NCBI GenBank assembly: GCA_014729275.1
Contig: WJKE01000066.1
Span: 1 to 42,239, forward strand
Direction: 5' to 3'
Length of the DNA: 42,239 nt
From: Candidatus Peregrinibacteria bacterium
GTDB taxonomy: Bacteria; Patescibacteriota; Gracilibacteria; UBA1369; LOWO2-01-FULL-3
The notes beneath the pieces are model-generated. The model saw nothing but the letters and a program-made list of their open reading frames with translations, was not told the DNA's origin and did not search any database. The translations under genes were made by a program, and so were the position numbers. Shown here piece after piece: positions 1 through 31,738 of this stretch; position 1 is the first letter of the stretch; every line of letters begins with the position of its first letter.

Positions 1-85
1 CTCTTACTTTCAATCTGACTTCATTCATATCTTTTCTCCAATTCTCACTAAAACCTCTAATTATTCGCTCCTCAAAAACTCCCCC

Positions 86-104
86 GGAGCAGCTATCGCT
101 GCTC
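86..104. repeat. GC-rich hairpin GGAGCAGC-TATC-GCTGCTC
   Basis: Inverted repeat read directly. Followed by GGGGCCTGGAAAAACTGGGGTCTTTTTAGG, which resembles the right end of the dispersed intergenic element. Confidence 0.6.
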
Positions 105-240
105 TCCAGGCGGGGCCTGGAAAAACTGGGGTCTTTTTAGGTAATTGTCACGATAATCAAAATAGCAAAAAAAATTGACAAATCCCCAAGAAAATCGTAG
201 CATCCAAAACTCAACTTTTATCTAACTAAACTGTATTATC

Positions 241-4541: not shown

Positions 4542-4585
4542 TCAATTTTTGATTTTACGAAAAATATTTTAGTTTCACTATATTA

Positions 4586-4752
4586 CTAAAAAGACCCCCG
4601 ATTTTTTCTCCATAGAATTTTTGGTTTACAGTAAACAAATATAGTTTTGCACATTAAAGCATAGCCTAGTATTAGCGTAAAATCGTGTACGGTAAAAAGC
4701 CAAAAATCGAAGATTATTTATAATTTTTTGGCAAAAACGGGGCTTTTTTAGA
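4586..4752 (+). repeat. Dispersed intergenic element, copy R1
   Basis: Imperfect terminal inverted repeats CTAAAAAGACCCCCGATTTTTT / GCAAAAACGGGGCTTTTTTAG. Internal stems GTTTAC-A-GTAAAC and GCCAAAAAT...ATTTTTTGGC. Homologous to R2 and R3. Confidence 0.75.
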
Positions 4753-4831
4753 GGATATTAATATTTACAAATTAAATAAGTATTAATATAATCAAAACTA
4801 TTTAAAATTTTTATTTATTAATTTAAGCAAA

Positions 4832-5113
4832 ATGAAATTAGAAAACTCTAAAGTATCTGTAACATCAGAGGGGGCTGAAGAAAAAATCGGACAATCTGAA
4901 GATTTTGCTGCAGCTATGAAGTTATTCCAAAATGAATGCATATCTGGAACAAACAATGGAATATCCGCAGAATTACGTAGAAAGTTTACAGAGTTGTTTG
5001 ATAAAATCGATGAGGTTGGAAATGGTGTTACGGAAGAAGCCAAACAAGTATTGCAAGAAGAGATTGATGAATTATTGAAAAGAGTTAAGGATATGTGTAG
5101 CTTTTATAAGTAA
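4832..5113 (+). CDS. Hypothetical protein, 93 aa
   Basis: ORF with protein-like helical composition, downstream of R1. Confidence 0.55.
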   Translation: MKLENSKVSVTSEGAEEKIGQSEDFAAAMKLFQNECISGTNNGISAELRRKFTELFDKIDEVGNGVTEEAKQVLQEEIDELLKRVKDMCSFYK

Positions 5114-13283: not shown

Positions 13284-15338
13284 CTAATTATTCAACATAT
13301 CCTCCCAAGTCTGATCTATTTTCTCCCAGGTATTTGAAACCAAATTTCCCTCAGTTTCCTCAGTGTCATTTTCATTTTTTACCCTAATTCTTCTATAAAC
13401 CTCAGGGTAGTCATCAGAAAGATATCTGTCAAAGAACTGTTCAAGAGTTGGAAGAGCCATTTCTTCCTGACCTGTCAGGCTAAGGCTATCCATTCCGTTA
13501 TAGTCTGCAATAATCACCATCATATCCACTCTATCAAATTTCCTTAATTCCGGTCTTGATTTCTTAATTTCATCAATGTTCCATACATCGTATAGCCCCT
13601 TCGAATCGCTGTCTCCCACAATGTCATAGAATCTTTTTCCCTCAACATCAATTGTTTCAGTAGCATCCTCATCCTCTTCAGTTTCCTCAGAAACATCTTC
13701 CTCAATCGACATTGTTTCATCTTCATAAATAACTTTTACGTTATCCTTTGTCTCTATTACAGCCATTTCCTCAGTTTCAGACTCAAGCGGCATCAAATAC
13801 ACTTTTTCCTCTTGTGCCTGCAGCTCATCCAGGGCTTGCTGCTCAGCAGAAACATCACTCGTATTATCAGATGAATTGATTAGTCCAAACAGTCCCATCA
13901 CTCCAAACACAGCTTTTTTAAACCATCTTTTAATTCTTCCTTGTTTCTTTAATTTAGCTGGATCAGGCAGAATATATAAGTCCATACCTTTATCAAACGC
14001 CTCCTGATCTTCACGTCTCTTTTTAAGGATTGAACTTAAGGCCTCTTTTAGCTCCTGCACTTCATTATATTTTCTAAGAAGTGAATTTTTGCATTCAGGA
14101 CTAGGCGTAATCTTATAAGTACGCATCAATCTTTTAGAAACTTTATCAGCTTGAGCCCATTTTGCTTCAATCTCATTCATTGTTTTTTCAGGCATTCTGT
14201 TGATAGAGTTCAGATCGTTAGAATACCAATTCTTTAACGCTTCCAAAGTCTCAGTTTCAGAGGCATAAACAGGATAAGCATCATCAGCTCCCACAGCTAC
14301 TTTTTGAACAGATTTTCTGCCGTACATAACCGCTCCCGGAGAAGAATCAAACGCAATACGTGTAATTTTACGTCTTTCTTTAATCAGTTTATTAATACCT
14401 CTATTAAGTTTTTTATACTTTTCCCACATATATTCACTAAGCTCGCTTGGTCCGTAAGCATTTTTCAGATAAGTATAAGACTTAACAATACGTTTCATCA
14501 TTAATTTATATGCAGAGTCTCTAATCTGACGATCAAGCTCTGTACTATCATTCATTCCGGTTAGAGCTCTTAAATCTTCCTCAATCATGTACTCACATAA
14601 AGAGATAGATTTTTTCGTATCAAATTCACTCGGAATATAAACCAAATATGGTGAAATCTCAGATACATCCGGATTATCAATTGTACAAAACTTAGCCTCT
14701 GTACAAATATTCTGATTTCTTCTTTGATCCGGATCAATCTGCTTAGGACGTGGAAGACCCGACATATCCATTTGTTCCACAATAACACTTGCTTGTTCGG
14801 TAGCACTTTGAACCGATTCACTAATTTCAGCAGTACCTGTTAGGGTTTTCTTAAGCTCATCTGCCTTAGCTCTTAATAGTCCACGGATCTCTTTAAATTC
14901 ACAAACCGGTGTATATAGCTTTTTAAATTTTGCATATCCGACAATTTTATTAATCTCTCCACTTAAATCCTTAGCAAAATCAGGATCCGTGATGAATCTA
15001 ATTGCCTTTTTCAAAGGTGCACTAATTAAGGACATAAATATGTCATCAATATAAGTGGAATCTCTTTGAACCTTTTTAATCTCCCTCAACTCATCAATAA
15101 GATCTCTAAAAGGATCGTAAATATCTGTTGGGGCAATATTTTGATTGCTTTCAATAGAAGCAATAATATCAGTAGCCCTTTTTATAGTAAGTAAAGGAGT
15201 TTCCTGAAATTCAACGTCATTTCCTGATTCTCCGGATTGGAAGAAATCATAGATACCGTCGTCAATTATTGTGTCGTCCCCTGGAGAACCTTGCGGCCCC
15301 ATTGGACGTCCCTGATTTTTAACACTTTTGTAATTCAT
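13284..15338 (-). CDS. Large hypothetical single-TM protein with C-terminal domain shared with 19774..22395
   Basis: 684 aa. Basic segment plus short hydrophobic helix (RIKRWFKKAVFGVMGLFGLI), acidic linker, C-terminal KRFYDIVGDSDSKGLYDVWNIDE..FDRVDMMVIIADYNGMD. Confidence 0.75.
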   Translation of the reverse strand: MNYKSVKNQGRPMGPQGSPGDDTIIDDGIYDFFQSGESGNDVEFQETPLLTIKRATDIIASIESNQNIAPTDIYDPFRDLIDELREIKKVQRDSTYIDDIFMSLISAPLKKAIRFITDPDFAKDLSGEINKIVGYAKFKKLYTPVCEFKEIRGLLRAKADELKKTLTGTAEISESVQSATEQASVIVEQMDMSGLPRPKQIDPDQRRNQNICTEAKFCTIDNPDVSEISPYLVYIPSEFDTKKSISLCEYMIEEDLRALTGMNDSTELDRQIRDSAYKLMMKRIVKSYTYLKNAYGPSELSEYMWEKYKKLNRGINKLIKERRKITRIAFDSSPGAVMYGRKSVQKVAVGADDAYPVYASETETLEALKNWYSNDLNSINRMPEKTMNEIEAKWAQADKVSKRLMRTYKITPSPECKNSLLRKYNEVQELKEALSSILKKRREDQEAFDKGMDLYILPDPAKLKKQGRIKRWFKKAVFGVMGLFGLINSSDNTSDVSAEQQALDELQAQEEKVYLMPLESETEEMAVIETKDNVKVIYEDETMSIEEDVSEETEEDEDATETIDVEGKRFYDIVGDSDSKGLYDVWNIDEIKKSRPELRKFDRVDMMVIIADYNGMDSLSLTGQEEMALPTLEQFFDRYLSDDYPEVYRRIRVKNENDTEETEGNLVSNTWEKIDQTWEDMLNN

Positions 15339-15407
15339 ATTATTAGTGTTAATAAATTTAGCTTGGCATATTACGATATTTGTTAAAGCTTGTCAAGCCT
15401 TTTTTGT

Positions 15408-15570
15408 CTAAAAAGATCTTGTTTTTTTTCATGCGATTTTTGTCTTACAGAAGACGAATACAGTTTTGTACTTTAAAACATAGCTTAATATAAGCGTCAA
15501 ATTGTATACGATAAAAAGCCAAAAATCGAATATTATTGTTAATTTTTGTCAAAAGCGGGCCCTTCTTAAG
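15408..15570 (+). repeat. Dispersed intergenic element, copy R2
   Basis: CTAAAAAGATCTTG...GTCTTACAGAAGAC...AAAAAGCCAAAAATCGAATATTATTGTTAATTTTTGTCAAAAGCGGGCCC aligns to R1 along its length. Confidence 0.75.
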
Positions 15571-30461: not shown

Positions 30462-31379
30462 TTAGCCCGAATCACAATACTCCGCAATTCGCCCGTTTAT
30501 CAAATTCATGATGTCGTAGTATGGCAGGGCATCAATTGGCCGCCAATGCTGCTCTTCCAGGAATCCAAGATGGATTATTTTGTGATGCTCAACACACAAA
30601 TGCTTCAATTTATCCGGATCATGCGTTTTTGTGAGCGCAAAAGCCTCTGTGTGGTGTATATTTTTGGCGGATTTGTAACAATTCGGATGCTCGCAAATTC
30701 CTTGAGACCGCCTGTTAATATATGTTTCGATTTTTTTGGGAATTTTCCGGCTGCGGTTTTTTACGGGCTTGGGTTTTTCAATTTTTGACTGCCTCTTTTC
30801 AGCTTCCATCCCTTTTTCACTCAATTCAAGCAATTTTTTCATAGCTTCATTCCAGTCGCCCTTGCCTTTAATTTTTTTCAACTTTTCAATTAACTCCTTA
30901 TCAAGCTTCATTGAAAGTTGTTCCTTTTGATTCAAACCTCGCTCTATTAAACCATTTTTGGTCGGACTCCCGGTGCCGGCACCATCATCACAATATTTTT
31001 CTTCCTTAAAATCCTTCACAAAAGTTACAAGAGTATTTTTGCTCATTTTTTTCGCCTTATCCGCCCAAAATTTCTGATTATCTTCAGTAGCAATGCATGC
31101 AACCGGTCGCACCGCCTGAATCCCCTTGTTCTCGGCAACTTCCATTAACTCCGGTTTATTCTTAATTTTCCGTAAAATACGCAAAGAATCATTAACTTTA
31201 TACCGGCTCATCCCCGCAATCACACGCGCATAATCGTAAATAGAATCAAACCCCTTCTTCTCCCAAATTCTATTCCTTTCAATTTTAGGCAGCATCAACA
31301 CGCATTTATGCATCCATTCCCGCGCATTCCGTCCATATCTGCAAAACTCATCGTGCAATATTTTATCTTTTTTATTCAT
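30462..31379 (-). CDS. HNH endonuclease domain protein
   Basis: C-terminal ICEHPNCYKSAKNIHHTEAFALTKTHDPDKLKHLCVEHHKIIH; N-terminal helical region. Confidence 0.85.
   Translation of the reverse strand: MNKKDKILHDEFCRYGRNAREWMHKCVLMLPKIERNRIWEKKGFDSIYDYARVIAGMSRYKVNDSLRILRKIKNKPELMEVAENKGIQAVRPVACIATEDNQKFWADKAKKMSKNTLVTFVKDFKEEKYCDDGAGTGSPTKNGLIERGLNQKEQLSMKLDKELIEKLKKIKGKGDWNEAMKKLLELSEKGMEAEKRQSKIEKPKPVKNRSRKIPKKIETYINRRSQGICEHPNCYKSAKNIHHTEAFALTKTHDPDKLKHLCVEHHKIIHLGFLEEQHWRPIDALPYYDIMNLINGRIAEYCDSG
30962..30984. repeat. Repeat family P copy P3, inside the HNH gene
   Basis: TCGGACTCCCGGTGCCGGCACCA versus P1 TCGGACTCCTCGTGCCGGCACGA. Confidence 0.65.
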
Positions 31380-31492
31380 ATTTCCGAGGGGTAAATGATA
31401 TTCTTATTATACCTTGAAAAAGCCAAAAATCGAGCATTTCAACTTGAAACTCCACGCAAAATATGGTGAGGATACGCTCACCCAAACACTTC

Positions 31493-31676
31493 CTTAAAAG
31501 TCCGGTTTTTTTCGCATATAATTTCTTGGTTTAAACTAAAGAAACAAAGCACCGCACATCAAAACAAAGCTCCGCACATCAAAACAAACATTAGTATAAG
31601 CACCAAATTGCGTACGGTAAAAAGCAAAAAAGCAAAGATTATTGATAATTTTTTGGCAAAACCGGGGCCTTTTAGG
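31493..31676 (+). repeat. Dispersed intergenic element, copy R3 (with internal 20-nt tandem duplication)
   Basis: CTTAAAAGTCCGGTTTTTTT...GTACGGTAAAAAGC...GATTATTGATAATTTTTTGGCAAAACCGGGGCCTTTTAGG. ACAAAGCWCCGCACATCAAA duplicated at 31544-31583. Confidence 0.75.
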
Positions 31677-31738
31677 CGCATTTTAACTTGACGACACGCC
31701 TAAATTTTTGTTTTCATAATAATACTAAATTAAAAACT

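What the first reader, a model, noticed from the sequence alone, without database searches (positions are those of the whole stretch)
4586..4752. Family of ~165-185 bp intergenic elements with nested, co-varying inverted repeats (R1; also R2 15408-15570, R3 31493-31676)
All three are intergenic and in the same orientation. They share the core TAAGCGN..AAATTGTRTACGRTAAAAAGCCAAAAATCGAAGATTATTGATAATTTTTTGGCAAAANCGGGGC. The ends are imperfect terminal inverted repeats (R1 CTAAAAAGACCCCCGATTTTT / AAAAACGGGGCTTTTTTAG; R3 AAAAGTCCGG-TTTTT / AAAACCGGGGCCTTTT). An inner stem is GTTTAC-A-GTAAAC in R1 but GTCTT-ACAG-AAGAC in R2: sequence changes while pairing is kept. This suggests either a MITE-like element or a structured RNA. 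No coding potential was seen.
Basis: seen in the sequence. Interest (0 to 1): 0.65.

Follow-up and report, generated by a model that had tools for sequence, protein, structure and literature searches.

The report
Promoter-hugging mini-transposons of an IS4 element
The repeated sequences are small, gene-less transposons, apparently moved by a larger jumping gene of the IS4 family, and both land about ten bases in front of the switch-on signal (promoter) of genes, a precise landing habit so far reported only for unrelated bacterial transposons.

Summary
The repeats are real. At least 20 copies lie in this 1.44-Mb draft genome, whose named relatives are Patescibacteria/Peregrinibacteria. They are a decayed MITE family, not a structured RNA. 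The ends match the terminal inverted repeats (CTAAAAAGNCCCNNGTTTTT) of an IS4-family insertion sequence. Ends of that IS close contigs across this genome; the window itself starts inside one. Copies carry 7-9-bp target-site duplications (permutation p = 1e-5). Orientation to genes is mixed.

The unexpected result is where the elements sit. MITE and IS alike lie about 10 bp upstream of a -35 hexamer pointing outward from one end. In 353 genomes of the class, the TIR followed within 30 bp by TTGAC gives 47 hits; 39 are at 9-12 bp, 27 at exactly 10. All six two-ended elements examined fit. Matching -10 boxes are enriched (p = 1e-6). An unrelated ISL3-family IS in the same clade sits 9 bp from -35.

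Promoter-upstream insertion is known for Mutator-type transposases (TnGBS, ISLre2, ISKra4; 15-17 bp). I found no report for IS4 elements or MITEs in the open-access literature searched.

The parts
4586..4751 (+). MITE copy R1, 166 bp, TIR CTAAAAAGACCCCCGATTTTTT / GGCAAAAACGGGGCTTTTTTAG
4577..4585 (.). left target-site duplication of R1, ACTATATTA (7 of 9 match the right copy)
   Evidence: sequence; TSD test over 15 copies p = 1e-5
4752..4760 (.). right target-site duplication of R1, AGGATATTA
   Evidence: sequence
4764..4769 (+). -35-like hexamer TTTACA, 12 bp from the right end of R1
4787..4792 (+). -10 TATAAT, 17 bp after TTTACA; predicted promoter of the gene at 4832-5113
15408..15568 (+). 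MITE copy R2, 161 bp
15391..15396 (-). -35 TTGACA, 11 bp outside the left end of R2, pointing away from it to the gene 13284-15338 (-)
15368..15373 (-). -10 TAATAT, 17 bp after that TTGACA
31493..31675 (+). MITE copy R3, 183 bp, with an internal 20-bp tandem duplication
31688..31693 (+). -35 TTGACG, 12 bp from the right end of R3, upstream of a peptide deformylase gene (start 31739); no clear -10 at 16-18 bp spacing
1..140 (+). right end of the IS4-family insertion sequence (contig broken inside it): 3-137 encode the last 44-45 residues of the transposase, 121-140 are the TIR

Best explanation
R1-R3 are copies of a non-autonomous transposon (MITE). Its roughly 20-bp TIRs are the same as those of a resident IS4-family DDE insertion sequence, whose transposase most likely moves it in trans. 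The transposase inserts IS and MITE alike about 10 bp upstream of the -35 hexamer of sigma70-type promoters, in either orientation, duplicating about 8 bp that lie between the element and the -35. Shown by sequence: TIR identity, TSDs, copy number, decay without covariation, and the fixed distance to -35 for both MITE and IS in many genomes. Inferred: trans-mobilisation by this transposase, and that the fixed distance reflects target choice (through the -35 sequence or through promoter-bound RNA polymerase) rather than selective survival.
For: About 20 copies. TIR pattern in 22 of 148 related genomes, none by the reversed control pattern. Full IS of 1286 bp with TSD ATTTGCC in G125 (same element L112); transposase hits DDE_Tnp_1 and NCBIfam IS4 models and has an exact Y-2-R-3-E-6-K signature with D95, D171 and E280. 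Own genome: five contig ends encode the C-terminus of that transposase. TSDs p = 1e-5. Offset: 39 of 47 TIR-TTGAC hits at 9-12 bp over 353 genomes (uniform expectation P = 2e-27); 16 of 20 exact TTGACA at 9-12 among 72 ends in held loci. All six two-ended elements examined at 10-11 bp. 12 of 18 own MITE copies have exact TTGAC at 9-14 bp, and four more have a weaker -35 with TATAAT 16-17 bp on. -10 match 4.28 against 3.09 for background TTGAC, p = 1.3e-6. If any site between the upstream stop codon and -35 were tolerated, ten copies would all land at 9-14 with probability about 1e-9.
Against: Beyond the TIR the MITE interior shows no similarity to the IS found here, so trans-mobilisation rests on the TIR. 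No intact IS copy is assembled in this genome. Promoters are predicted from hexamers, with no transcription data. Copies C57 and C102 have no clear promoter at the expected distance. For most IS ends only one flank could be read. R2 and R3 have no recognisable TSD.
Confidence: 0.87

Rival explanations
1. Structured RNA (riboswitch, leader or small RNA) with covarying stems.
For: Single-sequence folds are better than shuffles, z -2.7 to -3.5.
Against: No compensatory changes in the inner stems across 14 copies; the quoted hairpins are out of register; no Rfam match; both orientations to neighbouring genes; TSDs mark it as an insertion.
Confidence: 0.03
2. MITE as above, but the fixed distance comes from survival only: insertions elsewhere harmed genes and were lost, so those left lie just upstream of promoters in a compact genome.
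For: Compact genome with short intergenic gaps; all analysed copies are intergenic, apart from one overlapping a predicted frame.
Against: Selection alone gives no reason for 10 plus or minus 1 bp; several copies had 45-339 bp of free space upstream; the same offset holds across many genera.
Confidence: 0.07
3. Mechanism variant A: the transposase reads the TTGACA sequence itself as a flanking target motif.
For: Exact TTGACA is by far the commonest feature, at 10 bp.
Against: Clean insertions such as C40b (TTGTTT-17-TATAAT with an extended -10, TSD 7 of 8) and other -35-poor sites have TATAAT at the promoter distance; -10 boxes are enriched, though selection or later decay of the -35 could produce both.
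Confidence: 0.4
4. Mechanism variant B: the transposase is guided by RNA polymerase holoenzyme bound at the promoter and strikes just upstream of the protein.
For: -10 enrichment and extended -10 sites lacking a -35; an unrelated ISL3-family IS in the same clade sits 9 bp from -35; the Ty3 analogy was proposed for TnGBS (PMC3942029).
Against: No protein interaction evidence; few sites lack a recognisable -35.
Confidence: 0.4

Closest known systems
TnGBS / ISLre2 (p-MULT 3) and ISKra4 (p-MULT 4), Mutator-superfamily DDE elements (PMC3942029)
   Same: Insertion at a fixed distance upstream of the -35 of sigmaA/sigma70 promoters; for ISKra4 members with near-perfect IRs, promoters are found on either side
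   Different: Distance 15-17 bp (13-17) there against 9-12, mode 10, here; the transposase here is IS4 family (DDE_Tnp_1, YREK), not Mutator; no MITE partner came up in the passages read
IS4 family, subgroup ISPepr1 (PMC2266710)
   Same: YREK signature, DDE spacing (D95, D171, E280) within the family range, 5'-CT end, TSD 7-8 bp
   Different: Length 1286 bp against 1500-1600; end consensus YT-AA-YTT only partly matched; the paper reports only an AT-rich target preference for ISPepr1
Bacterial MITEs (e.g. MITEAba12, PMC6382973)
   Same: Short, non-coding, TIR and TSD, multi-copy, derived from or moved by an IS
   Different: Precise promoter-proximal placement; different IS family and host phylum (the MITEAba12 paper was seen only as a search result)

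Membership tests
MITE (non-autonomous IS derivative) | Terminal inverted repeats | tested here: met
MITE (non-autonomous IS derivative) | Target-site duplications | tested here: met
   7-9 bp, p = 1e-5 over 15 copies; not visible at R2 and R3 individually
MITE (non-autonomous IS derivative) | No transposase gene; many copies | tested here: met
MITE (non-autonomous IS derivative) | TIR shared with an autonomous element in the same genome | tested here: met
   the IS interior is not assembled
MITE (non-autonomous IS derivative) | Mobilised in trans by that transposase | not testable with these tools
   needs a transposition assay
IS4 family (partner IS) | Y(2)R(3)E(6)K and D(60-110)D(100-150)E | tested here: met
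   YLERWGVENICKRLK at 273; D95, D171, E280; definition from PMC2266710
IS4 family (partner IS) | Family profile at curated cut-off | tested here: inconclusive
   Pfam DDE_Tnp_1 above cut-off; NCBIfam IS4 models are the best hits but below cut-off
IS4 subgroup ISPepr1 | Ends YT-AA-YTT---A, length 1500-1600, TSD 7-8 | tested here: inconclusive
   5'-CT and TSD fit, length and end consensus do not
p-MULT 3/4 promoter-targeting elements | Mutator-type DDE transposase | tested here: not met
   IS4-type DDE_Tnp_1 transposase
p-MULT 3/4 promoter-targeting elements | Insertion 13-17 bp upstream of -35 | tested here: not met
   9-12 bp, mode 10
Structured RNA family | Covariation or match to a known family | tested here: not met

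The most novel reading that the evidence does not exclude
IS4-family transposition in Patescibacteria is guided by promoter-bound RNA polymerase (a bacterial analogue of Ty3/TFIIIB targeting), evolved independently of the Mutator-type TnGBS/ISLre2 elements, and is exploited by a MITE and perhaps shared by an ISL3-family IS in the same clade.
Probability: 0.4. Interest if true: 0.78.

Novelty: new variant of a known kind. Interest (0 to 1): 0.62.

Why it matters
Precise promoter-upstream insertion has been described as unusual among prokaryotic elements and tied to one motif in Mutator-type transposases (PMC3942029). Finding it at another fixed distance in an IS4 transposase and its MITE, and apparently in an ISL3 element, suggests promoter targeting evolved more than once. 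It would give small compact genomes a way to carry mobile DNA without breaking genes. It also means that insertion sites of these elements mark promoters in bacteria that are nearly all uncultured.

Tried and rejected
Structured RNA: tested with RNAalifold and pair counts, no covariation. TA-duplicating IS630/mariner MITE: considered because every end reads TA..., rejected once 7-9-bp TSDs and an IS4-type transposase appeared. Autonomous parent carrying an IS481-like transposase (C57, C121): rejected in favour of IS481-like insertions at one site inside the MITE. Exact-pattern scan of GTDB genomes for the MITE core found nothing outside this genome. PDB search with the transposase found no sequence match. 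The IS-X pattern in 353 genomes found only the own genome because its exact end is not conserved; the protein search reached relatives.

Full report
What was checked. R1 used as a BLAST query in its own genome (1.44 Mb, 155 contigs, 94% complete) finds about 20 copies on many contigs. Their cores are 63-92% identical, median 82%, so the family is old. A pattern for the core found no other GTDB genome, and BLAST in 98 relatives found little beyond the ends, so the interior is private to this lineage. Named genomes carrying the related IS are Patescibacteria/Peregrinibacteria.

Not a structured RNA. Across 14 full copies RNAalifold gives a covariation term of about zero and one compensatory pair. 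The two inner helices have no pair with changes on both sides, and pair slightly less often than shuffled columns. The hairpin quoted for R1 pairs other columns than the one quoted for R2; each is broken at several pairs in most copies. No Rfam family matches. The element runs with its neighbours in six cases, against them in six and lies between divergent genes in one.

A MITE. The flanks carry target-site duplications of 7-9 bp, for example ACAAGTAAC at C11 and CTTTTGTTTG at C103, both perfect, and GYGATGAC at C22 and ATTTAYGA at C40b. Over 15 copies the left and right flanks match better than in all 100,000 reshufflings (p = 1e-5). The TIR CTAAAAAGNCCCNNGTTTTT also ends an insertion sequence. 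Its pattern occurs in 22 of 148 related genomes, never by the reversed control. A full copy in G125 is 1286 bp with TSD ATTTGCC. Its 391-residue transposase matches DDE_Tnp_1 and, below the curated cut-off, IS4 models, and has the exact IS4 signature Y-2-R-3-E-6-K with D95, D171 and E280 (definition in PMC2266710). In this genome at least seven contig ends stop inside that IS; five encode the same transposase C-terminus, among them the start of the window, bases 3-137. The intact IS is not assembled, as expected for near-identical repeats in a draft genome.

Promoter-adjacent insertion. Reading outward from the copies, one end of nearly every element meets a -35 hexamer at almost the same distance. 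Of 18 MITE copies, 12 have exact TTGAC at 9-14 bp; four more have TTTACA, TTGAAA, TTGTTT or TTGCGG there with a perfect TATAAT 16-17 bp further on. TTGAC occurs at 0.00069 per base in the window, about 0.8% per copy for both sides together; that script's last line used 13 copies by miscount, and 12 leaves the chance near 1e-21 by my arithmetic. The same holds for the IS in other genomes. Searching the TIR followed within 30 bp by TTGAC gives 34 hits in 89 genomes of the order, 30 of them at 9-12 bp, and 47 hits in 353 genomes of the class, 39 at 9-12 and 27 at exactly 10 (P = 2e-27 against a uniform spread). All six elements in which both ends could be read have it at 10 or 11 bp; one has it on both sides. 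The -10 hexamer at 16-18 bp scores 4.28 of 6 on average, against 3.09 for other TTGAC in the window (p = 1.3e-6), so many of these are promoters and not just a motif. Promoters face the right end of the MITE in ten copies and the left in six, so orientation is free.

Targeting or survival? If any place between the upstream stop codon and the -35 had been tolerated, ten copies would all fall at 9-14 bp with probability about 1e-9. That, and one preferred base position across many genera, argues for target choice. Whether the transposase reads TTGACA or follows RNA polymerase is open. C40b, a clean insertion with a 7-of-8 TSD, has no good -35 but an extended -10 (TGCTATAAT), which favours polymerase; later decay of the -35 is not excluded.

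A second element. An ISL3-family IS of this genome (transposase fragment of a relative: DDE_Tnp_ISL3, E = 7e-43) sits 9 bp upstream of TTGACA, TTGACT and a TGGCCA-17-TATAAT promoter, and 9-12 bp outside two MITE copies. Two copies in a relative are also 9 bp from TTGACT. The sample is small.

Compared with what is known. TnGBS, ISLre2 and ISKra4 elements insert 15-17 bp upstream of sigmaA promoters, and their authors suggested contact with the RNA polymerase initiation complex, by analogy with Ty3 (PMC3942029). Those are Mutator-type transposases; this is IS4 type with another distance. The IS4 review does not mention promoters. Searches of the open-access library found no promoter-targeted IS4 element and no MITE of Patescibacteria; subscription papers were not searched. 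I therefore file it as a new variant of a known kind.

Noticed in passing
G000 contigs C61, C71, C72, C78, C144 (L188-L192); relatives L196, L202: A different, ISL3-family IS (end GGCTCTCTAAACACTTTGGGCC) also sits 9 bp upstream of -35 hexamers, and 9-12 bp outside the left end of two MITE copies.
   Followed up: partly
C57 (L015 from 1602), C121 (L019): Two diverged MITE copies are interrupted at the same position (after CAAATYG) by the same sequence starting TGTTTTGTTGCAG, which encodes a weak rve_3 (IS481/IS3-like) C-terminus: a possible site-specific insertion into the MITE.
   Followed up: partly
L063 1266-1525 (G033), L059 (G038), L062 (G029), L075 (G033): Other elements with the same TIR have a different interior with a CTGTTAAAT...ATTTAACAG-like pairing and a terminator-like hairpin, in three genera; possibly a separate structured element.
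   Followed up: no
C103 (L012 1389-1588); R3 31540-31600; C142 (L009 404-634): The middle of the MITE expands by tandem duplication: a TATAGCTTAA unit several times in C103, a 20-bp unit twice in R3, a 69-bp repeat of the 3' part in C142.
   Followed up: no
window 31465-31482 and L024 (C35): Palindrome GGTGAGGATACGCTCACC upstream of the gene 30462-31379(-) recurs, slightly changed, upstream of a related locus on C35, next to the word AAAAAGCCAAAAATCGA that is also in the MITE core.
   Followed up: no
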